Shown here piece by piece: positions 2,713 to 40,296 of a stretch of 49,114 bases of DNA. Both the position numbers and the translations under genes were made by a program. Every line of letters starts with the position of its first letter. Position 1 is the first letter of the stretch. Source of the DNA: Lachnospiraceae bacterium (GTDB lineage Bacteria; Bacillota; Clostridia; Lachnospirales; Lachnospiraceae); the NCBI GenBank assembly GCA_017436305.1, contig JAFSDJ010000101.1, positions 1 to 49,114 of the forward strand. The letters are read 5' to 3'. The notes below the pieces were generated by a model that saw only the letters and a list, made by a program, of their open reading frames with translations, had not been told where the DNA came from and searched no databases.

Positions 2713-2822
2713 TAGCTGTCCTCTTTCCTTATTTATTATGGGATATGTAATAGTTAGTCTTTCATATGATATATATTTAAACTATTCATAAGTAAGATTT
2801 GTTTTAAAAATGACATGTGTAC

Positions 2823-2851
2823 ATTATATAATTTTTTTATAGGAATTACAA
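2823..2851 (-). promoter_or_regulatory. promoter of the fumarase genes
   Basis: Minus strand: TTGTAA (2846-2851), 17-nt spacer, TATAAT (2823-2828), giving a leader of about 105 nt before the alpha subunit. The remaining sequence to 3001 holds a short hairpin (CGATAG/CTATCG near 2918-2935) and two tandem GATTAGAGT copies near 2864-2882, with no clear function. Confidence 0.55.
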
Positions 2852-3001
2852 TGTAAAAAAATAGATTAGAGTGGATTAGAGTCGATTTTGGGGAAAATCT
2901 TGTCTCTATTTATGCCGATAGCTGTCTATCGTAATATGTAATACTCTTAATATATGGAGATAATGCCAAGAACATTTTATACAAAGTAAGAAGACAGCTG
3001 A

Positions 3002-3109
3002 TTAAGCTGCCTCTTCCATGTATTCCATATAATCACCTTCGCTGGCAAATAATATATATCCTCCGTTTACAAATCCCATGTAGCCATCTTTTACAATAAA
3101 ACCTTTCAT
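3002..3109 (-). CDS. 35-aa conserved-looking small protein
   Basis: A small ORF encoding 35 residues, starting MKGFIVKDGYMGFVNGGY and ending with an acidic tail (EGDYMEYMEEAA). The ATG at 3109 is preceded by a strong ribosome-binding site (GGGAGG, 8 nt upstream), and the codons look like real coding sequence. It stands alone, with about 180 bp before it and 290 bp after it. Tyr/Gly-rich proteins of this form are, from memory, common small hypotheticals in Lachnospiraceae; their function is unknown. There is no signal peptide or membrane segment, so it is probably cytosolic. Aromatic residues alternating with glycines could form a single small beta-sheet. Confidence 0.7.
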   Translation of the reverse strand: MKGFIVKDGYMGFVNGGYILFASEGDYMEYMEEAA

Positions 3110-3292
3110 AATAAAAACCTCCCTGCTATATAAATACATTTCCGATGTTTCTTTGAACTGTACTTATTCTAGCAGAGAGGTTGTACAATAAATGGTACTT
3201 TTATTTGTGTCTTGCTATTACGTAGCCGGCCCCTTCCTTTTTAACCTTTTTGGGAAACTTTTTTGCAAATCGGCTATGCCGGATTCCGCAAA

Positions 3293-3835
3293 TTATTGGA
3301 TTAGCTCCATAAATAATTGCATACCCGTTTTCATAGTATCTCCTTCTAAAAGAAGAAGTTTCCCTTTTAAAAACGGATTAAGTGCCGCTTTGGATGCTTC
3401 TTTGTCTGTGATTTGGTATTGTCCGTTTGTCAGGATTATAATAAGTTTACTTCTGGCATGAAATAATTTCAATTTTTGAAGTAGTATTTCTAAATTTTTT
3501 TGGTTACTTTCTATGTTGTTTTCTGTTTTTTTTACTTTTTTTGTCTCTTCAAAAAATTTTCCCATTTGTACAAACATCATTGGAACTACCTGACTGGTAA
3601 TTTCTGTATCACTTTCCCATTTTACACCATTAAAACGTACGTTACGAAATACAGGGCTGTGGGATTTTAAGGTAGATATGATTTGGGCAGCCTGTTCTTT
3701 TAGCTTTGTTTCATCTATGTCATAATCAAAAACCATTGTCATTTCCAGATTGCCACCTTGAAAATTTCCCGGTGTATTCAGGATTTTATCTACTTGCTTA
3801 TTTAATTGAAGCTTTTGTACCTGGGTTAATGCCAT
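3293..3835 (-). CDS. hypothetical protein downstream of tyrS
   Basis: A 180-aa protein of unrecognised family. The N-terminal 25 residues are basic and helical (MALTQVQKLQLNKQVDKIL). A mixed region follows with a FRNVRFNGVKWESDTEIT stretch, then a Lys/Glu/Asn helix around residues 95-120. The C-terminal part contains a hydrophobic strand followed by a turn (KLIIILTNGQYQI), faintly like a von Willebrand A-type core strand; this is only an impression. No transmembrane segment or signal peptide is seen. It begins 23 nt after tyrS with a short SD (AAAGGAAG) and is presumably co-transcribed with it under T-box control. Confidence 0.75.
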   Translation of the reverse strand: MALTQVQKLQLNKQVDKILNTPGNFQGGNLEMTMVFDYDIDETKLKEQAAQIISTLKSHSPVFRNVRFNGVKWESDTEITSQVVPMMFVQMGKFFEETKKVKKTENNIESNQKNLEILLQKLKLFHARSKLIIILTNGQYQITDKEASKAALNPFLKGKLLLLEGDTMKTGMQLFMELIQ

Positions 3836-3858
3836 TTTAGGACTTCCTTTTTTGAAAA

Positions 3859-5082
3859 TTACTGGGCTAATACCTTGCGGAAATTTTTCTTTCCACGTTT
3901 TAACACAATGCCTTCCCCTGTTAATGCATCTTTTGCGAAGGTTGCTTTAATATCAGTTACTTTTTCTCCGTCTACAGATACACCGCCCTGTTCTACTGCA
4001 CGGCGGGCTTCTGATTTGGAAGGAACAAGACCTGATTTTACAAGCATTGTAAGAATATCAATTTCACCTTCCGTAAAGTCAGCGTCTGCTAACTCTGCTG
4101 TAGGCATATCTGCTGCATTTCCGCTTGAGAATAAAGCTCTTGCACTTTGCTGTGCTTTCGTTGCTTCTTCTTCACCATGAACCATTTTGGTAAGCTCGAA
4201 AGCAAGAATCTCTTTCGCTTCGTTTAACTGGCTTCCTTCCCAGCCATCCATTTTCTTGATTTCATCAAGCGGAAGAAAAGTAAGCATACGAATACATTTT
4301 AATACATCAGCATCTGCCACGTTTCTCCAGTACTGATAGAATTCAAATGGAGAGGTTTTGTTTGGATCAAGCCATACTGCGCCTTTTTGTGTTTTACCCA
4401 TTTTCTTTCCTTCAGAGTTAAGAAGCAAGGTAATTGTCATGGCATATGCGTCTTTTCCAAGTTTACGGCGAATCAGCTCGGTTCCCCCAAGCATGTTGCT
4501 CCACTGGTCGTCTCCACCAAACTGCATGTTACAGCCGTATTTTCTGTATAATTCATAGAAATCGTAGCTTTGCATAATCATGTAGTTAAACTCTAAGAAG
4601 CTAAGGCCCTTTTCCATTCTTTGTTTGTAACATTCCGCTGTAAGCATTCGGTTTACACTGAAATGAGGTCCTATGTCTCTTAATACTTCCACGTAATTCA
4701 AGTCTAAGAGCCAGTCTGCGTTATTTACCATCATAGCTTTTCCATCGGAAAAGTCGATAAATTTGCTCATCTGCTCTTTAAAGCAGTCACAGTTGTGCTG
4801 AATCTGCTCCTTAGTCATCATGGAACGCATGTCACTTCTACCGGAAGGATCGCCGATCATTGCAGTTCCGCCACCGATTAATGCAATTGGTTTGTTGCCT
4901 GCCATCTGCATTCTTTTCATAAGGCAAAGTGCCATAAAATGGCCTACATGTAAGCTGTCTGCTGTTGGGTCAAATCCAATGTAAAATGTTGCTTTTCCGT
5001 TGTTGATTAATTCTTTGATTTCTTCTTCGTCTGTTAACTGGGCAAGTAAGCCTCTTTCTTTCAACTCGTCAAATACTGTCAT
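3859..5082 (-). CDS. tyrS: tyrosyl-tRNA synthetase
   Basis: A 407-aa class Ic synthetase that charges tRNA-Tyr with tyrosine using ATP. The HIGH signature is HVGH at residues 45-48 and the KMSKS-type loop is KMGKT at 227-231. The tyrosine pocket region ([20 protein letters not shown]) is present. The C-terminal ~70 residues form an S4 RNA-binding domain ([19 protein letters not shown]). The length is normal for bacterial TyrS. The ATG at 5082 follows AAAAGGAGAAAAAT. A T-box leader (5200-5548) directly upstream, ending in an intrinsic terminator, shows control by uncharged tRNA-Tyr. The hypothetical gene downstream probably shares the transcript. Confidence 0.97.
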
Positions 5083-5199
5083 GATATTTTTCTCCTTTTC
5101 TTTCTGGTTTTACATATTTGCTTTTATTTTTGATAGTTTAGGACTATTGAGTTACTTTTAATTGTATAGAAAAATTTAGTAAAATTTCCTGTACGCATC

Positions 5200-5548
5200 A
5201 AAAAACCCTCGTCCTAAAAATAAGGACGAGGGCATCATCTCGTGTTACCACCTTAATTCACAGTTAGCTCGCGCTAACTGCCTCTGCAAGTACTGAATAA
5301 ATTTGGAGAGTTTCAAAAATCTGCTATTGATATGTTGATATTTGCAACGAAACTCCTTTTGCTATTTTGCAATACTCTGGTGCGATAACGGGCACTACCG
5401 TTGCAGCCTACTGGTATCAATACGTTTGGTGCAAAGCTCAGAGATGTATTCGGTATAAGCTTCCCATGCGCCTCTCATCAACCGGCTACTTTCTGTTCGT
5501 TTCACTTATCTTACTTGTTCTCTTCATTGCTGTTGGTTTGTTGAAATT
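5200..5548 (-). promoter_or_regulatory. T-box riboswitch, tyrosine-specific, before tyrS
   Basis: The minus strand carries the conserved T-box AAGGTGGTAACACG at 5241-5254. It is followed by a terminator with GC-rich arms (5206-5215 and 5223-5232) and a U-run at 5200-5205. In stem I, GAATACATC places a UAC tyrosine codon at 5446-5448 in the expected specifier-loop context. Uncharged tRNA-Tyr should pair with this codon and the T-box bulge and favour the antiterminator. The specifier assignment is by eye; T-box identity is certain. Confidence 0.92.
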
Positions 5549-21136: not shown

Positions 21137-21175
21137 TTAAAAAGGCGCAACCCTTGTTAAATTAAAGGATTGCGC
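21137..21175 (-). terminator. terminator after the CHR transporter gene
   Basis: On the minus strand an 11-bp stem (arms at 21165-21175 and 21145-21155, GCGCAATCCTT pairing with AAGGGTTGCGC) is followed by CTTTTTA. The first arm overlaps the last codons of the CHR gene. It ends the sulfate-activation operon. Confidence 0.85.
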
Positions 21176-22622
21176 TTGTCAATAAATTCAATATACAGAA
21201 CATAATACCTGCAATAAATATGTTCATCAGTAATAATAGGCCTGCCTTCGGGCTTCTTTTTTTAGAATATATATAATCAATTGTTGACAGTAGCACAACT
21301 ACCACCAATATGACCTGACTGGAAACTCCCATTTCCACGGCTACTGATTTATTTTGATTACACAAAGAAAGAATAATATTGCATAAAAGCCCTGCCACCA
21401 TTGGGCGAATCCAACGACCGATTTTCCGAACAATGCCCATATCACTTACACTGTTGTATAAATGATAAATGACAAAAAAGCATCCGGCTGATGCAGCAAT
21501 ACTACAGGCAAAACCTGCGATTGCAAAGAGAATACCTCCTAAAATAGTTCCTAAGTGCTCTAAGCCCATGTAATATCCCACACCTGCCAATGTTTTACAC
21601 AAAATGGAGCCGGGCAAAATATTTACTACCGGTACAATCTGCCCGTAGTAAACATCCTCTCCCACCATATTGCCATCCACAAACAGACCATGGGCAATGG
21701 TAAGATAGGCATCTCCACCGCCAAAAGACATTAGTGCAGACAGTAAACCTTCTCCCATAAATACAATTCCATCTTTATACAACATAAGCGCCGGCAAGGA
21801 TAAAATCACCAGAAAAACTATCCAGACCGCTGCATCACGCCAAACTCCATTCCAGTTGGTATTACGTCCACTTACATTTTTTCGTAACTCCCAGAATACA
21901 GCAAAAACCGTAGCAATCATCATAAGAATTTCTACTATACTTAAAAGACTGTCGCTAATTACCTGTAACTTTCCATGACCAAGCAAATACAGGCCACACA
22001 ATAGTACTGCCGGTATGACTCTTTTCATGCTGTAATCTGTCTGGGTGCACAAAAGGAAAAAAAATGCTGCCAATAACACATGAATGGTTGATACTGAAAA
22101 TAAAGGTGTACTTTCTATTCCCAATAATCGATAGAAATTTTTCTCAAATACAAGTAAAAAAACACCTATCATAAGAAAAATGGCTTTCAACAGCCGGGCA
22201 TTGCTTTCTTCTTTACAGGATTTCATTACCCTTCCAATATAATCTGCCAGTAAATATATGATAAATGCAGATACTCCTACAGATATAATCTTTACTAGCT
22301 GAAGTAAATCATTCTGCGCTGTAGACAGTACAGTAAAAAGAAGCAGCGCTCCTAAAGTTCCCGGCAAAGCCAGGGCAATAGCTCCCAATATCATACCCTT
22401 ATAGCCAAAATTGCGCCTTCCTAAAGAAGATGCAATTTCTACCGGCAAAGCTCCCGGCGTAATATTGGCCACAACTACATCCTTGTCATAGTTTTCCTTC
22501 GTATCAATCCCCTGTTTATCCACTACTTCTTTTTCAATAACCGGAATTAATGCACTTCCTCCGCCAAATCCAATACAGCCTACTTTCAGCATGGAGATTA
22601 TAAATTTACGAAACTGACTCAT
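21162..22622 (-). CDS. two-domain CHR-family (chromate/oxyanion) transporter
   Basis: A 486-aa membrane protein with the duplicated CHR architecture. The N-half signature is KVGCIGFGGGSALIPVIEKE and ITPGALPVEIASSLGRR. The C-half has LMSFGGGDAYLTIAHGLFV, then YGQIVPVVNILPGSILCKTL. About 10-12 membrane segments are visible. CHR proteins are named for chromate export, but chromate is a sulfate analogue. Here the ATG overlaps the CysNC stop (ATGA), so translation is coupled to sulfate activation. This makes sulfate import, or balance of a sulfur oxyanion, a more likely job than chromate resistance (inference). It is the last gene of the operon, before the terminator at 21137-21175. Confidence 0.9.
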   Translation of the reverse strand: MSQFRKFIISMLKVGCIGFGGGSALIPVIEKEVVDKQGIDTKENYDKDVVVANITPGALPVEIASSLGRRNFGYKGMILGAIALALPGTLGALLLFTVLSTAQNDLLQLVKIISVGVSAFIIYLLADYIGRVMKSCKEESNARLLKAIFLMIGVFLLVFEKNFYRLLGIESTPLFSVSTIHVLLAAFFFLLCTQTDYSMKRVIPAVLLCGLYLLGHGKLQVISDSLLSIVEILMMIATVFAVFWELRKNVSGRNTNWNGVWRDAAVWIVFLVILSLPALMLYKDGIVFMGEGLLSALMSFGGGDAYLTIAHGLFVDGNMVGEDVYYGQIVPVVNILPGSILCKTLAGVGYYMGLEHLGTILGGILFAIAGFACSIAASAGCFFVIYHLYNSVSDMGIVRKIGRWIRPMVAGLLCNIILSLCNQNKSVAVEMGVSSQVILVVVVLLSTIDYIYSKKRSPKAGLLLLMNIFIAGIMFCILNLLTSAIL

Positions 22623-24457
22623 GCTTCTGTCTCCCAAAAGCGTTCTAATGCCTGTAAAATTTCATCCACACATGCTTCCATACTTAACTTACTGGTATCC
22701 ACCATAACGTCCGGATTTTCCGGCTCTTCGTAAGGACTGCTGATACCTGTAAAATCCGATATTTTACCGGCACGTGCTGCTTTATACAGACCTTTCACAT
22801 CCCGTCTTTCACATTCCTCTAAGGGAGCATTTACATACACTTCAATAAAGCTGTCGCCAATAATCTCTTTTGCTCTTCTACGGTCTAAGCGATAAGGGGA
22901 AATAAAGGAAGTAAGCACAATCAGTCCTGCAGAATTCATTAGCTTGGATACTTCTGCAATTCTCCTGATATTTTCAATTCTGTCTTTTTCTCCAAATCCC
23001 AAATCTTTATTGAGACCCATGCGAACATTGTCCCCATCTAAAAGCATGGTATGCTTACCCATGGCAAACAGCCTTTTTTCCAGTTCGTTGGCAATGGTGG
23101 ATTTTCCTGCACCGGAAAGTCCGGTCATCCATACGGTAACTGCTTTCTGGTTCAAATGCTGTTGTCTTAGTTCCCTTGTAATGTCCATATTATGCCTTGT
23201 AAGGTTATCTTCCCTTGAGATGCTGTGTTCTACCACACCGCAGGCAGATGTCATATTGGTAATACGGTCAATAAGGATCAGGGAACCCATATCCCTGTTA
23301 TTATGGAATTCGTCAAAAACAATTTTACTTCCCGTAGAAATCTCGCAAAAAGCAATTTCATTTTTATAGATTGTTTCGGAATACACTTCTGCGCCTGTAT
23401 TCACATCCACTTTATACTTAATCTTCATGATTGTGGCCGGTACTGTCTGGGTTCCGATTTTAAGCATAAAATTCTTTCCTGCCACAAGACTGTTGTCATC
23501 CATCCATAGAATAGATGCTGCAAACATGGATCCAACATGTAGCTTATATTCTTTTTCTAATACACAGCCTCTGGATACGTCTACCTCTGTATCTAAACAA
23601 ATGGTAACACCTCGTCCGGCTTTGCTTTCATTTACAGACTTATCTCCCTGTAAAATCTCAGATACCTTTGCCTTTTCACCACTGGGAAGCACTGAAACCT
23701 GATCTCCCACAGCAATTTTTCCCGATGTAATCTGTCCTTGAAAACCACGGAACTGATGATTTGGGCGGCACACTCTCTGTACCGGCATAGAGAATTTTTC
23801 TGTTGAAGCTTCCCTGGAAACATCTACATTTTCAAGATACTCAAGCAGTGTTTCTTTCGTATACCAGGGCATCTTGTCTGACTTTTTCGTAATATTATCA
23901 CCGATGGTAGCAGACAATGGAATGATTTTGATACTCTTATAATCAAACTCTGCCATAAGGATCTTGATTTCTTTTTCTATTTTCTGAAACCGTTCCTGAC
24001 TGTAGTGAACCAAATCCATTTTATTTACTGCAAATACAAAATGTTCGATTCCCATCAGGTGACAAATTCTGGCATGACGCTTTGTCTGCACTAACACACC
24101 CTGACTGGCATCTGTTAAAATAACACTTAAGGAAGCAAAAGAAGCTCCCACTGCCATATTTCTTGTATATTCTTCATGTCCCGGAGTGTCCGCAACAATA
24201 AAACTTCTGTTTTCGGTAGAGAAATAGCGATATGCCACATCTATAGTAATTCCCTGCTCTCTCTCTGCCATAAGACCATCTAGCAATAGGGAATAATCAA
24301 TTCCGCCGCCGGCAGAACCTACTTTAGAATCAAGCTCCAATGCACGTTTCTGGTCTGCAAACAATAATTTTGCATCATAGAGCATATGTCCAATCAAGGT
24401 TGACTTTCCATCGTCTACACTTCCACAAGTAATAAATTTTAATAAATCATTTTTCAT
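22619..24457 (-). CDS. cysNC: sulfate adenylyltransferase large subunit fused to APS kinase (CysN-CysC)
   Basis: A 612-aa fusion that makes PAPS from sulfate together with CysD. Residues 1-~425 are the CysN GTPase: G1 GSVDDGKST (12-20), DTPGHE (90-95), NKMD (146-149), then beta-barrel domains. Residues ~438-612 are APS kinase: P-loop GLSGAGKST (about 446-454), LLDGDNVRMGLNKDLGF, the FISPYRLDR loop, and a C-terminal VDTSKLSMEACVDEIL. The NodQ-type fusion is complete and no catalytic motif is missing. The start at 24457 lies 1 nt after the cysD stop. It overlaps the CHR transporter gene by 4 nt. No PAPS reductase is seen nearby. Confidence 0.95.
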   Translation of the reverse strand: MKNDLLKFITCGSVDDGKSTLIGHMLYDAKLLFADQKRALELDSKVGSAGGGIDYSLLLDGLMAEREQGITIDVAYRYFSTENRSFIVADTPGHEEYTRNMAVGASFASLSVILTDASQGVLVQTKRHARICHLMGIEHFVFAVNKMDLVHYSQERFQKIEKEIKILMAEFDYKSIKIIPLSATIGDNITKKSDKMPWYTKETLLEYLENVDVSREASTEKFSMPVQRVCRPNHQFRGFQGQITSGKIAVGDQVSVLPSGEKAKVSEILQGDKSVNESKAGRGVTICLDTEVDVSRGCVLEKEYKLHVGSMFAASILWMDDNSLVAGKNFMLKIGTQTVPATIMKIKYKVDVNTGAEVYSETIYKNEIAFCEISTGSKIVFDEFHNNRDMGSLILIDRITNMTSACGVVEHSISREDNLTRHNMDITRELRQQHLNQKAVTVWMTGLSGAGKSTIANELEKRLFAMGKHTMLLDGDNVRMGLNKDLGFGEKDRIENIRRIAEVSKLMNSAGLIVLTSFISPYRLDRRRAKEIIGDSFIEVYVNAPLEECERRDVKGLYKAARAGKISDFTGISSPYEEPENPDVMVDTSKLSMEACVDEILQALERFWETEA

Positions 24458-24458
24458 C

Positions 24459-25352
24459 TTAAAAGTATCCCTCGCGTTTTCTTTTTTCCATGCTGGCAGA
24501 ACCGCCGTCAGAATCAATAACCCGGCTTGTACGTTCAGACTCTACTGCGGCTAATGTTTCATCAATAATCTCATCTAAGGTTGTAGCAGTAGACTCTACA
24601 CCCCCTGTCAGAGGATAACAGCCTAAGGTTCGAAACCGCACCATTTTATTTTCTACCACTTCACCCGGCAAAAGATTTAATCTTTCATCGTCCACCATAA
24701 TCAGATTGCCGCCGCGGTTTATTACCGGTCTTTCCTTTGCAAAGTACAATGACACAATAGGGATATTTTCCTGCTTAATATATTGCCAAATATCCTTTTC
24801 GGTCCAGTTAGACAATGGAAATACCCGGATACTTTCTCCTTTGTTAATTTTGGTATTAAAAAGCTTCCACATTTCCGGACGCTGATTTTTCGGGTCCCAT
24901 GCGTGGGATGCATTTCTAAAAGAAAAGATTCTTTCCTTAGCTCTGGATTTCTCTTCGTCTCTTCTTCCACCGCCAAAAGCTGCGGTAAAACCATATTTAT
25001 CCAGTGCCTGCTTTAATGCCTGTGTTTTCATAATATCCGTATAGGCTGAGCCATGGTCGAAGGGATTAATTCCCTGATTAACACCGTCTTCATTTATATA
25101 TTCTAGCATTTCAATCTGCAAATCCTGTGCCATCTTATCCCGAAATTCAATCATTTCCTTAAACTTCCATGTGGTGTTCACATGAAGAAATGGAAATGGT
25201 GGTTTCTCCGGGTAAAATGCTTTTAATGCAAGATGCAGCATTACAGAAGAATCTTTCCCGATAGAATACAACATTACCGGTTTTTCACACTCTGCCGCCA
25301 CTTCCCGCATAATATATATGGCTTCTGCTTCAAGTTCATCCAAATGAGTCAT
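24459..25352 (-). CDS. cysD: sulfate adenylyltransferase small subunit (CysD)
   Basis: A 297-aa ATP-pyrophosphatase (PP-loop) subunit that adenylates sulfate to APS, driven by the CysN GTPase. The PP-loop is [18 protein letters not shown]. Further landmarks are [51 protein letters not shown] and the C-terminal [16 protein letters not shown]. The length matches CysD/NodP. The start is ATG 25352 (MTHLDELE), with TTAGGAG 8 nt upstream; an ATG 18 nt earlier overlaps that SD and is unlikely. It follows the sensor kinase, separated only by an intrinsic-terminator-like hairpin. Confidence 0.96.
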
Positions 25353-25371
25353 ATGTTTTTCTCCTAACATT

Positions 25372-25419
25372 AAAAAAAGACTTTAACGTTTATTATCCTA
25401 AACAATAAACATTAAAGTC
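25372..25419 (-). terminator. terminator/attenuator between sensor kinase and cysD
   Basis: On the minus strand a 16-bp stem (GACTTTAATGTTTATT with its near-complement, one G-U pair; 25379-25419, 9-nt loop) is followed at once by seven Ts (25372-25378) and then, a few bases on, by the cysD SD. No promoter fits between the T-run and cysD. A weak promoter (CTGACT, 18 nt, GATAAT) is embedded in the first arm and loop. Confidence 0.8.
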
Positions 25420-25436
25420 AGATTAAAAAATACTAA

Positions 25437-26759
25437 CTAAGATGGTAAAAGCAGTGTAAACATACTCCCCTTACCTACTTCACTGGAAACAGTAATAGTT
25501 CCCCCGTGTTTTTGTGCTATTTTCATGGAAAGTGGCAGACCTAAACCAAATCCTTCAATATTTCTGGATTTGTCACACTTATAGAATCGCTGGAAAATAT
25601 GCTCTAACTCTTCTTCCTCAATACCGATTCCATAATCTCTTACTGACACAAATACCTGATCCTCTTTTATTCCTGTCTCTACTTCAACGATGCCCTTATC
25701 ATGGCTGAACTTCACCGCATTACTAATCAGGTTTTGAATTACGATAGAAATCAGACTGATATCTCCGGTTGTGAAGACTTCTTCTAAATTTGTGACTATG
25801 GTTACTTTCTTCCCTACCTTCTCTTGCTGATCTTCGCAAATGGACCGGACAATCTCCCCAAGGTCCAGATTTTCCTTCTGTACCTGCATTGTTCCCTGAT
25901 CTAATCGGGAAAAATTTAAAAGTTGAGTAATGATTGTGCTGATTTTCTTAGACTGACGATAAATCACATCCAGAGCCTCTTTATACTCTTCCTCTGTATT
26001 AATTTGTTCTTTTGCATATTGACACTGTGCCATTACTACTGCCACAGGGGTTCTAAGCTCATGTGCAACATCTGAGGTAAACTGCTCCTGTTGCCTGAAG
26101 TTTTGCTCTATTCGGTCTAACATACGGTTATTTGCTTCCGCTAAAACGGCAATTTCAGAAAACCTATTATCCGGTTCCATTCGTTTGGACATATCTAAAT
26201 CGGAACCAATGCTTTCTGCAGTTTTTCGCATACTTTTCAGCTCAACTGAAATTCGTTTTGCTAAAAAAATCTCACAAAGTAAAATCCCGCAAAATACACC
26301 TATAATACTTAAATAAGATACCATTTCAATTGTCCGGTAGCTACTGTAGGCATCTGCCCGATTTACAATTCCACGGAGTATAATCCCTCCGGTAGTACTC
26401 TTTCCCACACGCACATCCCGCACATAATATTTTTCTCCATCACACACCACACTTCTACTAATATTGGTCATAATATGTGTATTGGCCAGACCCTTTGCAG
26501 GATAATTTCCCTCAAGAACTTTGCCATTCCTTTTTAAAAGAAGAAAGTACACACTATCACTCTTATATGTAAAATCATCCAAAATTTCTAATTGCCCATT
26601 CTGTACATTTACATATTTGGAATTTGTAGCTATGGCTTTTGTAAGTTCCTGCTTTATATCATATTCCACTGCCGCATTGGATAAAATACGGATTAAAACC
26701 AGCATAATAATCGTCATTACAATCATTGCCACAGATGGAAGAATTGCAACATAGCGCAT
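25437..26759 (-). CDS. membrane sensor histidine kinase
   Basis: A 440-aa class I histidine kinase. TM1 is residues 4-26, an extracytoplasmic sensor of about 115 residues follows, TM2 is about 146-168, then a HAMP-like linker. The HisKA box is FTSDVAHELRTPVAVV (His about 233). The ATPase lobe has NLISNAVKFS (N box), VRDYGIGIEEEELEHIFQRF (G1/F boxes) and GFGLGLPLSMKIAQKHGG (G2). The sensor domain shows no recognised family. It is paired with the OmpR-type regulator 14 nt upstream and sits inside the sulfotransferase/PAPS locus, so it may sense sulfate, an envelope state or a host signal (inference). Confidence 0.93.
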   Translation of the reverse strand: MRYVAILPSVAMIVMTIIMLVLIRILSNAAVEYDIKQELTKAIATNSKYVNVQNGQLEILDDFTYKSDSVYFLLLKRNGKVLEGNYPAKGLANTHIMTNISRSVVCDGEKYYVRDVRVGKSTTGGIILRGIVNRADAYSSYRTIEMVSYLSIIGVFCGILLCEIFLAKRISVELKSMRKTAESIGSDLDMSKRMEPDNRFSEIAVLAEANNRMLDRIEQNFRQQEQFTSDVAHELRTPVAVVMAQCQYAKEQINTEEEYKEALDVIYRQSKKISTIITQLLNFSRLDQGTMQVQKENLDLGEIVRSICEDQQEKVGKKVTIVTNLEEVFTTGDISLISIVIQNLISNAVKFSHDKGIVEVETGIKEDQVFVSVRDYGIGIEEEELEHIFQRFYKCDKSRNIEGFGLGLPLSMKIAQKHGGTITVSSEVGKGSMFTLLLPS

Positions 26760-26773
26760 AATGGATATTTGTT

Positions 26774-27448
26774 TTACTCGGTTCCTTTTAATATATATCC
26801 CACCCCTCTGATTGTCTGAATCATTTTAAACTCAAAGTCCTCATCTATTTTTTTCCTCAGATAACGAATATAAACATCTACCAGATTAGATGTGCCATCA
26901 CGGTTTAAATCCCAGATGTTCTCTTCTATTTGTTCTCTGGTAACTACAATATTCTGATTCCTTATGAGATATAATAACACAGAATATTCCTTTGGGGAAA
27001 GTTCAATTATTTTTCCTGCCCTTGTAACAGAACAAAGATTGCAGTCCACAACTAAATCACCGCAAGTATACACATTCTCGTGCACATCCGCTTTTTTTCT
27101 TGTAATCATACGCACTCTGGCTAGGAGTTCCTTAAAATCAAAGGGTTTTACTACATAATCATCGGCACCTGAATCCAGGCCCCGTACTATATCATTTACA
27201 TCACTTTTTGCAGTCAGAAATAAAATTGGTGTGGAAATTCCTTTGTTTCGAACCTTTTTAAGCACTGTAAATCCATCCATTTTGGGAAGCATAATGTCTA
27301 GTATAACGCCATCATATTCTGCCATACACAGATAATCGTAGGCACTTTCTCCATCATAGCAGCTATCCACAATATATCCTTCTGACTGCAGCGCTTTTAC
27401 TATAATGCGATTCATATCTTTCTCATCTTCTACTACAAGTATCCGCAT
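26774..27448 (-). CDS. OmpR/PhoB-family response regulator
   Basis: A 224-aa regulator. The receiver domain has the acidic pair VEDEKD, phospho-acceptor Asp51 in GVILDIMLPKMDGF, and LFLTAKSD and DYVVKPFDFKELL with the conserved Lys. The C-terminal winged helix has LSPKEYSVLLYLIRNQNIVV, TSNLVDVYIRYLRKKID and TIRGVGYIL. AGGAGG lies 5 nt before the ATG at 27448. The 63-bp gap to the sulfotransferase holds repeated GGTAACAG/GTTAC words (27460-27506), which may be its own binding sites. It is encoded directly before its kinase. Confidence 0.95.
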   Translation of the reverse strand: MRILVVEDEKDMNRIIVKALQSEGYIVDSCYDGESAYDYLCMAEYDGVILDIMLPKMDGFTVLKKVRNKGISTPILFLTAKSDVNDIVRGLDSGADDYVVKPFDFKELLARVRMITRKKADVHENVYTCGDLVVDCNLCSVTRAGKIIELSPKEYSVLLYLIRNQNIVVTREQIEENIWDLNRDGTSNLVDVYIRYLRKKIDEDFEFKMIQTIRGVGYILKGTE

Positions 27449-27459
27449 AATTGCCTCCT

Positions 27460-27506
27460 GTTACCTACCCACACGTTACTGTTACCTTCATCCCCTGTAA
27501 CGTATA
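27460..27506. repeat. GTAAC-rich repeat cluster upstream of the response regulator
   Basis: The minus strand reads GTTACAG, then AAGGTAACAGTAAC, then TAGGTAACAGGAGG within 47 bp, so the word GGTAACAG occurs twice about 18 nt apart with further GTAAC copies. The last copy merges into the SD of the response regulator. It could be related to the dispersed GTTACTGTT elements elsewhere in the window, or be direct-repeat binding sites of the regulator. Confidence 0.4.
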
Positions 27507-27512
27507 CATATT

Positions 27513-28658
27513 CTATTTCCGGCGAAATTTATTTAATATATTTTTACAAGATGCCGTTATAGAACGTTGCTCTTTTTGCAAAGTTTCAAATTCTTTTCTT
27601 AGCTTTTTATTTTCTTCCTTTAATTGGGTTATTTCATCCAATAAATACACATTGCTCATTCCGATAAAGCGCACTACATCCTCTAGCATATAAGGGTTGT
27701 CCGGTGTCCATTTTGGTAAATCCTTTACGGTGTTATCGAATAGTTCTTCTTCTCCAAAATATTCTATGGCAATTTTTTTATTTCCCTCTTCATATTTTGA
27801 AAGTAGCTCCAATGTTTCTTCTTTGGAAAGTGTGTCACATGGATATTTTTCTTTGGAAACTTCTGAACAATCCTTTAGCACATCCCTGAAAAAATTCTGG
27901 GTTTTTAAGTCCCTTGCTTTTGGAAGTGTATTTATAATACGTTTTATTTCAGTAGGATTTCCTGGTGCCAGCCCGGTATTACGGTCTTCCTTACCAACTT
28001 CATATTTATCTTCCCATTCTAAGCCAATGGCCTGTAAGAAATCTGTATATATATTGCCACCTATAAAGTTTTCTTTATCAAAGCGTCTGACAATAAGATT
28101 CTCTTTTCCTAGTATGGAAGCAAGCCTGTCAATTTTGTCCCCATAATTTAGCCTTGCCTCTAAATTCCTGTCTTTTATATAATCCTCAAATCTTCTGTCC
28201 GTATTTCCCGGCGGGCTTTTTATACTCTGGTTCCAGATAGAGCAAATCATTTTATCCTGTCTTCTAAGATAAACAATGGCTTTTATGGTAAAGTCGCCTT
28301 TTTTACTCTCTTCTTTTAATTTGTCCCATAAATCCTTGCTTTCTATATCCATGGCACGCCAGATAGATTCGTCTGACAAAATAACATTATCATACTTTGC
28401 AAACTGTTCCTGTACTTTTTCCATGCCTTCATTAAAAAGCTGTGCTTCCCTTTCAAGACATCTTTCGCCATTTTCATCCTTAATAACACCTACCAGAAAA
28501 TGTCCATTTCTGGCTTTGGCAACTACCGGATATTTATAGAAGCTGGGCGGATAACAGTATCCCCTCTCATTCAGCAAAGATTCATTATCCATACAGAACC
28601 GCTGAATAGATGTAGTTCCTGTTTTGGGCGTACCGATGTGTACGTATAAAGTTTTCAT
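27513..28658 (-). CDS. PAPS-dependent sulfotransferase-like protein
   Basis: A 381-aa protein. The N-terminus LYVHIGTPKTGTTSIQRFC is the 5'-phosphosulfate-binding loop of sulfotransferases. A second segment, AIVYLRRQDKMICSIWNQSI, fits the 3'-phosphate-binding strand-helix (Arg and Ser). LEWEDKYEVGKEDRNTGLAP lies in the C-terminal half. The last ~35 residues are a Lys/Glu coiled coil (EITQLKEENKKLRKEFETL) ending in basic residues. No signal peptide is seen, so it acts in the cytosol on an unknown acceptor. The start ATG 28658 is preferred (GAAAGAG 8 nt upstream) over GTG 28667. It has its own promoter and leads the locus that makes PAPS, its expected donor. Confidence 0.85.
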   Translation of the reverse strand: MKTLYVHIGTPKTGTTSIQRFCMDNESLLNERGYCYPPSFYKYPVVAKARNGHFLVGVIKDENGERCLEREAQLFNEGMEKVQEQFAKYDNVILSDESIWRAMDIESKDLWDKLKEESKKGDFTIKAIVYLRRQDKMICSIWNQSIKSPPGNTDRRFEDYIKDRNLEARLNYGDKIDRLASILGKENLIVRRFDKENFIGGNIYTDFLQAIGLEWEDKYEVGKEDRNTGLAPGNPTEIKRIINTLPKARDLKTQNFFRDVLKDCSEVSKEKYPCDTLSKEETLELLSKYEEGNKKIAIEYFGEEELFDNTVKDLPKWTPDNPYMLEDVVRFIGMSNVYLLDEITQLKEENKKLRKEFETLQKEQRSITASCKNILNKFRRK

Positions 28659-28704
28659 ATTGTTCACTCTTTCTACTTTATATTTTGTCTTTTGCGCACT
28701 ATAT

Positions 28705-28733
28705 TATATAATACGTCCCCAAAATTAAAGCAA
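28705..28733 (-). promoter_or_regulatory. promoter of the sulfotransferase gene
   Basis: Minus strand: TTGCTT (28728-28733), 17-nt spacer, TATATA (28705-28710; an overlapping TATAAT lies two bases further on). The leader is about 40 nt. This would start the sulfotransferase/two-component transcript. Confidence 0.5.
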
Positions 28734-28747
28734 CATTAAAAGTAGCA

Positions 28748-29020
28748 TTATATTAAAACAAGTGCAAAAAGAGCCATGACACCCGGAATTCCTAATACTG
28801 CACTTGTCAATATAGTAAGGGGATTTATTCCTACACTCTGAGCGATTCCATAAGAAAAAAGCAGTTGATTTACCCCGTAGATTGTAACTGTTCCCACAAT
28901 TCCTCTCATAATAAATCCCATAATAATTTCCAATTTATTTTTAAAGAAAAGAATTCCCAGCACCAAAATACATATTAAAATAATAAAGCAGCCACCCCAT
29001 ATTTCGTCTATTTTTATCAT
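28748..29020 (-). CDS. bofA: BofA-family sigma-K processing inhibitor-like protein
   Basis: A 90-aa membrane protein with three hydrophobic segments. The C-terminal signature matches BofA: GVNQLLFSYGIAQSVGINP, then TILTSAVLGIPGVMALFAL. In Bacillus, BofA holds the SpoIVFB protease inactive in the forespore membrane until sigma-K is needed, so its presence fits a spore-former or a recent descendant. The SD is weak (AAAGACGG). It is divergent from the YaaL-like gene; a bofA-yaaL association is also known in Bacillus, which supports both calls. Some clostridia carry BofA without the rest of the checkpoint, so the role here is not certain. Confidence 0.85.
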   Translation of the reverse strand: MIKIDEIWGGCFIILICILVLGILFFKNKLEIIMGFIMRGIVGTVTIYGVNQLLFSYGIAQSVGINPLTILTSAVLGIPGVMALFALVLI

Positions 29021-36312: not shown

Positions 36313-39300
36313 TTAATTTAGAAAGTCTTTTTCCCTAAGTATAATCATATCATCCCCGTCGTAGCGTTTTGCTAAAATAATATCCATAAAATGGGCAACA
36401 TTTTTCTTTCCTGCATTGGCAATGGCCTTATCTACTATATCTTTAACTTCTGTAACGGTTACTGCATGTTCATTTGTCTGCAGATCAGCAATTTTAGTAT
36501 AAAGCGCCAATACACCCATATCATCAATGGCATATTCCTGTTCCTTTGCGTACTCCTTGGCATAGTTTACAAGTCCGTCATTGTCTAGTGCCTCAATATC
36601 CATTCTTGCATTAAATTTTACTGTTATTTCAGGATAAAGCAAAGATAATCTTTCAACTTCACTCTTTGTGTCCTCCATAATAACAAAAACCTTATGGTCT
36701 TTTAGTCTGTCCAGATGGAATAAGAGATTTCCAATGGCGTCTGCCGGCATATTTCCTGCTTTTTCAATAATCAGAGCGCTATTTTCCATACTCTGTAAGG
36801 TGGCTCCAATATCTTTTTCAGCTAATAATGCTCCTGTAATTTTGGCAACTCTTCCGGAAAATTCAGGATATTTTTCTGTTAAATTAATTACAACATTCTG
36901 AGCTGCCTGTAAAGTATTTGTTCCCTGTTCTCCTGTAATAAGCATATTTCCTACAGATGCGGAAAGTGATACTGAATCTAATGCCTTTGCTACTTTAATT
37001 TGTTCCTCTTTGCTTGGAGCAAAAGAAGCAAAATGTGCTCTTTCTTCTTTTGTCAATGAACGGGCCGGTATTTCCTGTTTCGGCATATATGCCTGAAGAT
37101 AATCTGTATTTTTTAAATCTACAGGATTTCCAATGGAAACTGCCCCATTTACCGTAGGCTGTGATGTTCCCGGTACATCTGCTGTGGGCTGGGATGTTAC
37201 AGTTGCAGATGGCTGTTGCGATATTCGGGATTTCATGGCTGCAACTGCTTCTGCGGCTGACTGGGCCTGTGGCTGATTTTCTATAGTAGAAACTGTAGGA
37301 ATAACTCCTGTGCGCGCCCTCATAGCTGCAACTGCCTCAGCAGCTGATTGTGGCTGATTCATAATTGGTGTTTCCTGCACTACAGGCTGTGGTGCCTGAG
37401 GCATTATTGGTGTTTCCTGCACTACAGGCTGTGGTGCCTGAGGCATTAACGGTGTTTCAGTTGTCATTGCCTGCTGTACCAGTGGTTGCTGTGACAGAGG
37501 TATTACCGGTGTTTCCTGTACTATAGGCTGTACTGTCTGTGACATTGTAACTGGTTCCGTCGCCATTGCCTGCTGTACTAATGGCTGTTGTGACAGAGGT
37601 ATTACCGTTTTTTCTAATTCTACCTGCTGCGGCATGTGAGCCTCTGTTTGCATTTCTGGTTTCACCGGCTGCCAAATTTGAGTGGCTGCCAGTGTTTCTT
37701 CTGCAACCGTCCGTTGTACTAAAGGTTGCTGTGACAATGGTATTACCGGTCTCTCCGGTTCTACATGTTCTATTGTCTGTGGCTCTTCTACAATTTCCGG
37801 TACAATTGGCTGTACTTCTTCTTTTGTATCTTCAAAAAAGGTGCTATCAATAGAAATTGGTTCAATGGGAGCTTCTTCTTTCATTTCAGGGCTATTTAGA
37901 GCATCTAACAGTTTTTCCTCAAGGCCAAAAATTTCCTCTGTATTGAAGGTTGTGGAATGCGGCTTTTCCTGAGGCATTTCTGTTTCTTCAACAGATTCTC
38001 CCATATCTTCTTCAATCTGTTGTTCCTCTAAATCAAATATATCCTCTATATAACTTCTGCTTTTAGGTTCTTCGTCTAGATGATCGTTTTTAAATACATC
38101 TTCTGCGGGATTAATCAAATCCAGATCTGCCGAAACACTGGCTCTTGCCATAGCATCAAAGTTGCTGAACATTGGACCTGTCTGTTGAATAACCCTTTCC
38201 CGCATTTCTTTTATACGACGTTCCTCACTGGCTTTTTTGGTTTCTTCCCATTCAGCCATAATATCCACCAGACTAAGCTGCCCCGTGATTTGTTCGTCTT
38301 CCGGCTTATTTTCTTCTTGCACTGAAACTTCCGGCTGTCCGGACTGCTGTTCCTGTACCGATTGCACTTTTTGTACTTCTTCTGTGGCTTGTACCGGCTC
38401 TACCACAGACTGCATTTGAACTGTCAGTTGCTCCGGTTCAGATGCTTCCTGTGCTAAAACCTCCGGTTGTCGCTGTTCAGTCTGCACTTCTTGTGGTTCT
38501 TCCGCTGATTGTATGGCCTCTACAACCAATGGGGCTTCCTGCTCTGGCTGAGCTTCCTGTATTGGTTGAGCTTCCAGCACCGGATGAGCTTCTTGTACTG
38601 GCTGAGATTCCTGCACCGGCTGGGCTTCCTGTACTGGTTGGGCTTCCAGCTCTGGCTGGGCTTCCTGTACTGGTTGGGCTTCCTGTATTGGCTGGGCTTC
38701 CTGCTCTGGCTGAGATTCCTGCACCGGTTGGGCTTCCTGCTCTGGCTGGGCTTCCTGTATTGGCTGGGCTTCCTGCTCTGGCTGAGATTCCTGCACCGGT
38801 TGGGCTTCCTGCTCTGGCTGGGCTTCCTGTACTGGTTGGGCTTCCTGCTCTGGTTGGGCTTCCAGCATCGGCTGGGCTTCTTGTACCGGCTGCGCTTCCT
38901 GCACTGGCTCCATTTCTTGCGATTGTTCTATGGATTGGGTTTGTCCCGCTGTTTCTTGTACTACAGGTTCCGCTTCCTTTATCGTTTGTACTGCTTCCGG
39001 AATGCGGGTAGTCTCTGCTGCCAAAGCCTCATTTTCCACCTGTGCGCTTTCCTGTTTCAGTTCATTTTCTTCATTTTCCTTCATAGAAGCTAACAAGTCC
39101 TCTTCTGTAATCGGTGTCAGCTCTGTAGTATCCTGAAGTAATGGCGCAATAATAGCATTTTTAATAGAATCATCTGTAATAGCACCCATAATCGTGTCAC
39201 TGTTTGCAGCTTCTGCCAATGTAGCAAAAGGCATTGCCAATGTGGCGTCGCTGGCAACCATGTCCTCTTCTGCCATAAATTTTGCAAGACTTTTTGCTAA

Positions 39301-40296
39301 TTCCTGCTGTAAATTAATAGTGCTATACTCATTGTCCACATCTATTGTTTTTACTTTAATATCTAAATCATCATCCGGCGGGGTAAGAGGAATTTCCTCT
39401 TCCTCAGCTTTTTCCTCCGTGTTTTCACATGACTCATTTTCGAAATTGTCGCCTTCTTCCACCTGCTCTATTGTTTCTTCCTGCTGTTCTGAAACTTCTT
39501 CTTGTGGAGCAATTTCCGTTTCTTCAGCTACTTCTGCTAACTCTGCCTCTACTTTTTTAGAAGGAATTTTAGCTGTTGGACCGTCGGAAGGCTCTATTGC
39601 CTTAATTTCAATTGGAAGGGCTGAGTCATCCTCTGCCTGTTCGTTAGTTACTTCCCCATTATTTTCATATGTAGGCTCTTCTTTTTCAAAGCGTCTGTCA
39701 TATTTTTCCTGCTGGCTTGCAGTTAAAGGACAATGAAGCATTTTTAGCTCCATAGCTTTAATGACATACTTGCCCTCTCCAAACCATAAAATCAGCTCGT
39801 CACATTCTTCCACGCATCTGGTAGCAAGTCCGATTCTATGATATAAATATGCCAGTTCATATGCCCATTTTTCACGATAATCTCTTTTTTTGTACTCTTC
39901 CAGTACCGCAATTCGCTCCTCTAAACTTACGTCCTGAGCTTCATACAGACGATACTGCAAAATAAACTTTCCGGTATCTCTCGGTGCAAGCTGTACAAAT
40001 TCTTTGTAATATTCAACTGCCTGAACGGTTTCTTCCAGTTTAATAGCAAGTTCGCACAAAGAATACACAATTTTTCTGGAACCGGGATTTCTATCGTATG
40101 CTAATAATAAAATCTCTTTACTATCTTCGTAACGACGATTGATTTTATATAGTTCACTAACTTTACAAAGCATCATTACACTTTTAACCCTGCGCCAATC
40201 AATTGTATCTGCAATTTTTACAGCTTCCACATATTCCTTTTTGTCTATGAGAGCATTGATTTCCTCTGCCCGAATACGATATTCATATTTATCCAA
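36313..40296 (-). CDS. 1327-aa TPR / Gln-Pro-Glu repeat / AAA-like protein
   Basis: Three parts. Residues 1-~205 are TPR-like helices (RAEEINALIDKKEYVEAVKI, YRIGLATRCVEECDELILWF). Residues ~210-1060 are disordered, acidic and rich in Glu, Gln and Pro; they include 20 tandem hexads of the type VQEAQP, at least three copies of IPLSQQPLVQ, and two QSAAEAVAAM units. Residues ~1080-1327 resemble an AAA-type core (VGNMLITGEQGTNTLQAAQN, SALIIEKAG, HKVFVIMEDTKSEVERL). The Walker A lacks the Gly-Lys-Thr/Ser, so ATP hydrolysis is unlikely. The start is TTG 40296, with GAGGTGAAGG upstream. No signal peptide. It may be a cytoplasmic scaffold (inference). glgB follows by 21 nt. Confidence 0.8.
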   Translation of the reverse strand: MDKYEYRIRAEEINALIDKKEYVEAVKIADTIDWRRVKSVMMLCKVSELYKINRRYEDSKEILLLAYDRNPGSRKIVYSLCELAIKLEETVQAVEYYKEFVQLAPRDTGKFILQYRLYEAQDVSLEERIAVLEEYKKRDYREKWAYELAYLYHRIGLATRCVEECDELILWFGEGKYVIKAMELKMLHCPLTASQQEKYDRRFEKEEPTYENNGEVTNEQAEDDSALPIEIKAIEPSDGPTAKIPSKKVEAELAEVAEETEIAPQEEVSEQQEETIEQVEEGDNFENESCENTEEKAEEEEIPLTPPDDDLDIKVKTIDVDNEYSTINLQQELAKSLAKFMAEEDMVASDATLAMPFATLAEAANSDTIMGAITDDSIKNAIIAPLLQDTTELTPITEEDLLASMKENEENELKQESAQVENEALAAETTRIPEAVQTIKEAEPVVQETAGQTQSIEQSQEMEPVQEAQPVQEAQPMLEAQPEQEAQPVQEAQPEQEAQPVQESQPEQEAQPIQEAQPEQEAQPVQESQPEQEAQPIQEAQPVQEAQPELEAQPVQEAQPVQESQPVQEAHPVLEAQPIQEAQPEQEAPLVVEAIQSAEEPQEVQTEQRQPEVLAQEASEPEQLTVQMQSVVEPVQATEEVQKVQSVQEQQSGQPEVSVQEENKPEDEQITGQLSLVDIMAEWEETKKASEERRIKEMRERVIQQTGPMFSNFDAMARASVSADLDLINPAEDVFKNDHLDEEPKSRSYIEDIFDLEEQQIEEDMGESVEETEMPQEKPHSTTFNTEEIFGLEEKLLDALNSPEMKEEAPIEPISIDSTFFEDTKEEVQPIVPEIVEEPQTIEHVEPERPVIPLSQQPLVQRTVAEETLAATQIWQPVKPEMQTEAHMPQQVELEKTVIPLSQQPLVQQAMATEPVTMSQTVQPIVQETPVIPLSQQPLVQQAMTTETPLMPQAPQPVVQETPIMPQAPQPVVQETPIMNQPQSAAEAVAAMRARTGVIPTVSTIENQPQAQSAAEAVAAMKSRISQQPSATVTSQPTADVPGTSQPTVNGAVSIGNPVDLKNTDYLQAYMPKQEIPARSLTKEERAHFASFAPSKEEQIKVAKALDSVSLSASVGNMLITGEQGTNTLQAAQNVVINLTEKYPEFSGRVAKITGALLAEKDIGATLQSMENSALIIEKAGNMPADAIGNLLFHLDRLKDHKVFVIMEDTKSEVERLSLLYPEITVKFNARMDIEALDNDGLVNYAKEYAKEQEYAIDDMGVLALYTKIADLQTNEHAVTVTEVKDIVDKAIANAGKKNVAHFMDIILAKRYDGDDMIILREKDFLN
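38545..38904. repeat. coding 18-bp tandem repeat (20 units)
   Basis: Twenty in-frame copies of an 18-bp unit encode (V/E/I/M)(Q/L)E(A/S)(Q/H)P hexads of the 1327-aa protein. Variation is mostly at codon 1, with EQEAQP/VQESQP/IQEAQP higher-order blocks, which points to recent duplication and likely copy-number variation between strains. Confidence 0.9.

What the first reader, a model, noticed from the sequence alone, without database searches (positions are those of the whole stretch)
21137..28733. NodHPQ-like sulfonation locus in a clostridial background
Seen: a sulfotransferase-type protein with a PAPS-loop (HIGTPKTGTTS), a two-component system, CysD, a complete CysN-CysC fusion and a CHR transporter are consecutive on one strand between one promoter and one terminator. 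Known: CysD plus CysNC make PAPS; NodP/NodQ plus sulfotransferase NodH sulfate rhizobial Nod factors. No PAPS reductase or sulfite reductase lies in the window. Inference: the locus makes PAPS to sulfonate a specific acceptor (surface glycan, lipid or secreted metabolite), and is not for assimilation. The two-component system inside it suggests the modification is conditional.
Basis: partly seen in the sequence, partly recalled or inferred. Interest (0 to 1): 0.78.

Follow-up and report, generated by a model that had tools for sequence, protein, structure and literature searches.

The report
Switchable sulfate-tagging gene island
A gut-type Clostridia genome carries an inserted six-gene island that probably imports sulfate, activates it and attaches it to some cell product, most likely a surface sugar polymer, under the control of its own environmental sensor.

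Summary
The genes are as described, but not "one promoter, one terminator": a strong hairpin separates sulfotransferase-RR-HK from CysD-CysNC-CHR. The six genes form an island beside bofA, absent from that site in 5 of 5 genus mates, with a bofA-end scar. The first gene matches no Pfam or NCBIfam family, but its AlphaFold model (pLDDT 94.6) has a sulfotransferase fold, nearest heparan-sulfate enzymes. Sulfonation rather than assimilation is supported: 8 of 8 family genomes with this sulfotransferase (of 150) have CysD; PAPS genes lie within five ORFs in 49 of 80 related loci; CysNC-fusion loci lack AprA (0 of 14, versus 10 of 13 CysN-only loci); no CysH, AprA or sulfite reductase was found in the 84%-complete genome. 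New: the direct repeat TTTAAT-N5-TTTAAT occurs exactly twice in the window, before the sulfotransferase and before CysD, and precedes 17 of 155 module genes but 0 of 943 other genes in the 80 loci, more often where the same response regulator is present. It resembles the CiaR box. NodHPQ is only an analogy; Bacteroides BT0412-0416 is nearer. Acceptor, signal and activity are unproven; a surface glycan or wall polymer is the likeliest acceptor.

The parts
27513..28667 (-). SULF: sulfotransferase of a family without a Pfam or NCBIfam model; likelier start 28658; 57-residue C-terminal helix with basic end
   Evidence: AlphaFold pLDDT 94.6; fold matches; K15, R135, S143 motif residues conserved in the family
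26774..27448 (-). RR: OmpR-family response regulator
   Evidence: Response_reg and Trans_reg_C; orthologues of 60% or more only in sulfotransferase genomes, 3 of 150
25437..26759 (-). HK: histidine kinase, two predicted TM segments (5-23, 149-167)
   Evidence: HisKA, HATPase_c; hydropathy
24459..25370 (-). CysD, sulfate adenylyltransferase small subunit; likelier start 25352
   Evidence: NF009214 507 bits, cut-off 413
22619..24517 (-). CysNC, sulfate adenylyltransferase large subunit fused to APS kinase; likelier start 24457
   Evidence: NF004035 840 bits, cut-off 715
21162..22637 (-). CHR-family transporter, probable sulfate importer (inferred)
   Evidence: Chromate_transp 117 bits; chromate-efflux model TIGR00937 73.6 bits, below its cut-off 171.7
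28724..28740 (-). direct repeat TTTAAT-N5-TTTAAT before SULF, probable RR operator, followed by TATAAT
   Evidence: one of two matches in the window, 0.16 expected; sequence
25411..25427 (-). direct repeat TTTAAT-N5-TTTAAT before CysD, probable RR operator, followed by GATAAT
   Evidence: the second of two matches; sequence
25379..25419 (-). terminator-like hairpin, 19-bp stem then U7, between HK and CysD; overlaps the CysD promoter box
21166..21182 (-). remnant of the resident bofA 3' end (start of the scar), read as the last codons of CHR
   Evidence: 17 of 17 nt identical to 4 of 5 genus mates' bofA, 16 of 17 in the fifth; alignment runs on into resident intergenic DNA
28791..28810 (-). partner word near the 3' end of intact bofA at the other edge of the island

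Best explanation
The block is an acquired, self-regulated sulfonation cassette. CHR imports sulfate (inferred); CysD and CysN make APS; the CysC domain makes PAPS; SULF transfers the sulfonate from PAPS to an acceptor, most likely a membrane-proximal surface glycan or wall polymer made by genes elsewhere. The linked HK/RR pair senses an extracytoplasmic signal, and phosphorylated RR binds TTTAAT-N5-TTTAAT repeats in the two promoters, switching on SULF-RR-HK and CysD-CysNC-CHR together. Shown by computation: gene content, fold, linkage, assimilation genes not found, insertion, recurrent box. Inferred: direction of transport, RR binding, activation rather than repression, acceptor class. My rough odds by step: PAPS sulfotransferase cassette 0.9, TCS control of both units 0.75, glycan or wall-polymer acceptor 0.55.
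Against: 31 of 80 SULF loci have no PAPS gene within five ORFs (some contigs are short). The genome is only 84% complete, 5 of 5 genus mates have a NIR_SIR protein, and so have 5 of 8 SULF genomes. G172, with the most similar module of the family set, has an extra large PF01507 protein. With one mismatch the box is no commoner in the window than chance (4 versus 4.4); genome-wide it is near background (8 versus 5 reversed controls). Most module genes lack an exact box (138 of 155), and four of the five boxes in loci not read beforehand lie in loci without this RR. Foldseek TM scores are moderate and 12 of its 13 hits with E up to 0.001 are phosphofructokinase/bisphosphatases, which share the P-loop fold. 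No acceptor gene lies in the island.
Confidence: 0.72

Rival explanations
1. The cassette serves sulfate assimilation: CysDNC and CHR feed a reductive pathway located elsewhere, and SULF is a passenger.
For: The genome is 84% complete; genus mates have a NIR_SIR protein, 5 of 5; G001 and G172 have large extra PF01507 proteins.
Against: No CysH, AprA or NIR_SIR found in the genome; family loci with AprA carry CysN without CysC, 10 of 10; APS kinase is not needed for the AprA route (established knowledge); SULF never without CysD in the 150-genome set, 8 of 8.
Confidence: 0.1
2. The acceptor is a small molecule (host sterol, bile acid, phenol or a secreted metabolite) rather than a cell-surface polymer.
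For: In Bacteroides a cluster of similar logic (BT0412-0416) sulfonates cholesterol (PMC9417993, passages). No glycosyltransferase lies in the island.
Against: Fold closest to glycan sulfotransferases, with SULTs about 4 Z units lower; polymer genes near some SULF relatives; long C-terminal helix with a basic end suggests membrane association (inference).
Confidence: 0.25
3. The two-component system is an unrelated neighbour that regulates other genes, for instance efflux or metal resistance; the cassette is constitutive.
For: RR and HK score best against heavy-metal families, though below their cut-offs; in L033/L079 the same RR follows what looks by eye like an efflux gene set; 64 of 80 SULF loci lack this RR within five ORFs.
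Against: It came with the block; RR orthologues of 60% or more occur only in SULF genomes, 3 of 3 (p 1e-4, or 0.002 without own); SULF genes carry the box in 9 of 20 cases in RR loci and 2 of 83 in others (p 2.9e-6; 5 of 16 versus 2 of 83 after dropping the four I had read first, p 0.001); RR linkage needs at least 7 gains or losses on the SULF tree, so it recurs.
Confidence: 0.15

Closest known systems
Bacteroides BT_0412-BT_0416 cholesterol sulfonation cluster (PMC9417993, passages seen)
   Same: Gut anaerobe; proposed sulfate importer, PAPS synthesis genes and a sulfotransferase side by side; transcript levels respond to conditions
   Different: No two-component system was mentioned in the passages seen; Bacteroidota; whether BT_0416 is related to SULF was not tested
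Rhizobial NodPQ/NodH (recalled)
   Same: CysD plus CysNC-type PAPS synthesis dedicated to a sulfotransferase with a glycan-type acceptor
   Different: No nod genes seen in the island; relation of NodH to SULF not tested; here a linked TCS and CHR
Xanthomonas rax system: raxST, raxP/raxQ, raxR/raxH (recalled; only a search listing seen)
   Same: Sulfotransferase, PAPS genes and a two-component system
   Different: Peptide acceptor there; no small ORF seen beside SULF here; gene layout differs (recalled)
Heparan sulfate 3-O-sulfotransferases and NDST1
   Different: 11-14% identity; eukaryotic; acceptor here unknown; SULF has an extra long C-terminal helix
CiaRH of streptococci (PMC8317062, passages seen)
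   Same: Box TTTAAG-N5-TTTAAG versus TTTAAT-N5-TTTAAT; CiaR regulon includes teichoic-acid modification operons dlt and lic
   Different: Last base of each half site; orthology of RR to CiaR not tested
AprAB-linked CysDN loci of the same family (L037, L039, L041-L044, L047, L048, L052, L061)
   Same: CysD 79-87% identical in these loci
   Different: CysN without APS kinase, adenylyl-sulfate reductase beside it, no SULF

Membership tests
PAPS-dependent sulfotransferase | Sulfotransferase fold | tested here: met
PAPS-dependent sulfotransferase | 5'-phosphosulfate loop (Lys-Thr) and 3'-phosphate motif (Arg, then Ser eight residues on) | tested here: met
   T16, R135 and S143 invariant, K15 and T18 at least 90% in 56 sequences; LRRQD....S in 80 of 93 relatives. 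The assignment of these residues to PAPS binding is recalled
PAPS-dependent sulfotransferase | Match to a curated sulfotransferase profile | tested here: not met
   No Pfam or NCBIfam sulfotransferase match for the window protein; 2 of 8 relatives reach Sulfotransfer_1 only at E 0.042 or worse. A profile match is not essential to the enzyme class
PAPS-dependent sulfotransferase | Sulfonate transfer from PAPS | not testable with these tools
   needs an enzyme assay
Dedicated PAPS cluster (CysD, CysN, CysC) | ATP sulfurylase subunits and APS kinase present over cut-off | tested here: met
Assimilatory sulfate reduction locus | APS or PAPS reductase and sulfite reductase | tested here: not met
   none found in the 84%-complete genome
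NodHPQ | Nod-factor backbone genes and NodH homology | not tested
   No NodH sequence was compared; no nod gene was seen among the window genes profiled
Chromate efflux transporter (ChrA) | Match over the curated chromate-efflux cut-off | tested here: not met
   TIGR00937 73.6 bits, cut-off 171.7; the superfamily Chromate_transp is met
CiaR-type regulator | Direct repeat with N5 spacer before target promoters | tested here: inconclusive
   Same geometry, last base of each half site differs; binding not tested
CiaR-type regulator | Orthology to CiaR | not tested
   No CiaR sequence was compared; best solved-structure match is DNA binding response regulator D, 1kgs
Integrative element inserted at a gene 3' end | Displaced gene end at the far side of the insert | tested here: met
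Integrative element inserted at a gene 3' end | Integrase gene in the element | tested here: not met
   none among the six island genes

The most novel reading that the evidence does not exclude
A widespread, horizontally moving regulon of gut Lachnospiraceae sulfonates a teichoic-acid-like or capsular wall polymer under envelope-stress control, adding negative charge on demand (the reverse in charge of CiaR-controlled D-alanylation), through a sulfotransferase family that the libraries searched do not model and whose fold is closest to animal heparan-sulfate enzymes.
Probability: 0.25. Interest if true: 0.82.

Novelty: new variant of a known kind. Interest (0 to 1): 0.64.

Why it matters
Gut bacterial sulfonation with a dedicated PAPS cluster is described for Bacteroides (PMC9417993, passages). 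Here is a large sulfotransferase family without a library model in Lachnospiraceae, with cultured carriers such as Anaerobutyricum hallii DSM 3353 and Roseburia faecis M72, with PAPS supply, a probable importer and, in a subset, a dedicated sensor and promoter box. It makes directly testable whether common gut Firmicutes sulfate their surface or a metabolite, and when.

Tried and rejected
Flagellin sulfation, suggested by the flagellin and FliS neighbours: dropped, because those neighbours are core synteny in 5 of 5 genus mates without the island.

A peptide acceptor as in rax: the gaps beside SULF are 64 and 80 nt and no ORF was called there at the lengths listed (90 or 100 aa), so a very short peptide is not formally excluded.

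GTAAC repeats before RR as an RR site: not shared by the relatives printed.

A genome-collection scan with the single SULF sequence confirmed nothing; the scan with the eight-sequence alignment found 400 relatives, of which the best 80 are kept. A viral-contig scan gave one weak partial match.

Six other genome matches of the box: three lie inside genes on the opposite strand (L184, L187, L189), one is intergenic with no called gene on its strand (L188), one lies 114 bp before a 75-aa ORF (L185), one 81 bp before a secreted amidase/glucosaminidase wall hydrolase (L186; distances).

Sequence search of solved structures with SULF alone or as a profile found no sulfotransferase. PHROGs gave only weak hits in the coiled-coil range for the window protein. 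Foldseek against viral models gave two hits with E up to 0.001, neither of them named as a sulfotransferase. A putative polysaccharide flippase in L151, judged by eye, had no NCBIfam match.

Literature: searches listed nothing that describes this cluster in Lachnospiraceae (listings only, open-licence library); that is not proof that none is in print.
Full report
1. What is there. The six minus-strand ORFs are real and lie in the order SULF, RR, HK, CysD, CysNC, CHR. CysD and the CysN-CysC fusion exceed their curated cut-offs; TCS and CHR are secure at domain level. SULF matches no Pfam or NCBIfam sulfotransferase family. 'One promoter and one terminator' does not hold: between HK and CysD lies a 19-bp hairpin with a U7 tail that overlaps a promoter-like element. 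I read this as the end of SULF-RR-HK and the start of CysD-CysNC-CHR; no transcript data exist here.

2. Where it comes from. The window is a whole contig of an unnamed draft genome, 2.6 Mb, 84% complete, 3.7% contaminated. Its family also holds G172, whose record is named Lachnospiraceae bacterium RGIG8549 (the same DNA as L079), so I take the family to be Lachnospiraceae.

3. The block is an island. In 5 of 5 genus mates bofA is followed after 254-273 bp by the Tad-type prepilin peptidase gene; the window has the six genes in between. CysD is absent from all 5 mates, and SULF from all 60 relatives searched with the single sequence. A remnant of the bofA 3' end sits at the far side: 17 nt at 21182-21166 are identical to 4 of 5 mates' bofA (16 of 17 in the fifth) and the alignment runs on into resident intergenic DNA, while intact bofA carries the partner word at 28810-28791. 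CHR's last residues, LLTSAIL, match the bofA reading there; CHR ends two or more columns later than 18 of 19 aligned homologues (the other, L111, has one stray last residue). This fits insertion at the 3' end of bofA with that end restored; no integrase lies in the block, so the mechanism is inferred.

5. PAPS for sulfonation. Over 150 family genomes SULF occurs in 8 and CysD in 28; 8 of 8 overlap, 7 of 8 on the same contig (not G132). Among the 80 best SULF loci (72 assemblies; chosen by SULF alone) a PAPS gene lies within five ORFs in 49, CHR in 13 and ABC-type transporter genes in 15. The 29 family CysD loci, own excluded, comprise 14 with a CysNC fusion, 13 with CysN only and 2 cut by contig ends. 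AprA lies in 0 of 14 and 10 of 13 (p 3.4e-5); two more of the 13 look like contig-cut AprA by eye. AprA identity was checked at cut-off for two of the ten. SULF is linked in 5 of 14 (6 with a weak divergent copy in L059) and 0 of 13 (p 0.041 or 0.016). L033/L079 and L035/L088 are the same DNA, so the two surveys overlap. In the own genome no second PF01507 protein, no NIR_SIR and no AprA was found. Against: 5 of 5 genus mates and 5 of 8 SULF genomes have a NIR_SIR protein; G001 and G172 have a large extra PF01507 protein; 31 of 80 SULF loci have no PAPS gene nearby.

6. The two-component system belongs. RR copies of at least 60% identity occur in 3 of 150 family genomes, 3 of 3 with SULF, although in G086 on another contig. 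HK gave only 31-34% matches, in 3 of 40 relatives. In the 80 loci the orthologous RR lies within five ORFs of SULF in 16, for instance as RR-HK-SULF-CysD-CysNC or RR-HK-CysC-SULF. Several other loci show a different RR/HK pair divergent from the module.

7. A shared promoter box. TTTAAT-N5-TTTAAT occurs exactly twice in the window, at 28740-28724 before SULF and 25427-25411 before CysD (0.16 expected); with one mismatch allowed it is not above chance (4 versus 4.4). I noticed it by reading upstream regions and then tested it. In the 80 loci there are 19 exact matches; 17 lie 14-100 bp before SULF, CysD or the RR on the coding strand. In 120-bp upstream regions it precedes 17 of 155 such genes and 0 of 943 other genes; no other spacer from 0 to 15 gives more than 2 in any class. 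In loci not read beforehand: 5 of 124 versus 0 of 785, with two of the five (L088, L099) near-copies and only one in an RR-bearing locus. SULF genes carry it in 9 of 20 cases in RR-bearing loci and 2 of 83 elsewhere; after dropping the four I had read first, 5 of 16 versus 2 of 83, p 0.001. Genome-wide it is near background (8 versus 5 reversed controls; genus mates 3-7 each). The box resembles CiaR's TTTAAG-N5-TTTAAG, whose regulon includes teichoic-acid modification (PMC8317062, passages). One further match in the genome lies 81 bp before a secreted wall hydrolase.

8. Acceptor. Not shown. Hints for a surface polymer: glycan-type fold neighbours; SULF relatives within five ORFs of CDP-glycerol glycerophosphotransferase-type genes in 6 of 80 loci; TagD-type, GDPD, Stealth and acyltransferase genes near some. 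More than one SULF ORF occurs in 21 of 80 loci (split ORFs such as L118 included). Hint for a small molecule: the Bacteroides precedent.

9. Evolution. The window SULF lies in a supported 10-row clade of 5 RR-locus rows (itself included), 4 PAPS-linked rows and 1 other. RR linkage needs 12 changes on the tree (shuffled mean 18.4; at least 7 forced by supported branches), that is, repeated gain or loss.

10. Verdict. A new variant of a known kind. Sulfotransferase plus dedicated PAPS synthesis is known; the unmodelled family, the linked TCS with its box, the CHR slot and the bofA insertion are not described in what I saw of the literature (searches under Tried and rejected).

Noticed in passing
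window 21166-21182 and 28791-28810: bofA 3'-end scar: the resident gene end lies on the far side of the island, and CHR's last codons read from it; a possible integration site for mobile DNA in Lachnospiraceae.
   Followed up: partly
L186 (G000:C91) box 1979-1995, gene 2077-5274: The repeat box lies 81 bp before a secreted protein with Amidase_3, GBS Bsp-like repeats and Glucosaminidase: a possible third target of the island's regulator.
   Followed up: partly
L037, L039, L041-L044, L047, L048, L052, L061: Lachnospiraceae CysD-CysN loci with adenylyl-sulfate reductase AprA beside them and no APS kinase domain: a separate, probably assimilatory or dissimilatory class.
   Followed up: partly
L080-L083, L085, L096: A compact variant RR-HK-CysC-SULF with an acyltransferase-3 gene just upstream and no CysD or CysN in the stretch seen.
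   Followed up: no
L104, L111, L116, L123, L148, L152, L114, L124: A different RR/HK pair divergent from the sulfotransferase module, as if two regulators had been recruited independently.
   Followed up: no
L058: CysD-CysNC followed by another sulfotransferase-like protein (FICIGFQKCGTTS) and CHR, without the SULF family; no NCBIfam match.
   Followed up: no
window 36313-40296: A 1327-aa protein with a long QPVQEAQPEQEA-type repeat and no Pfam match.
   Followed up: no
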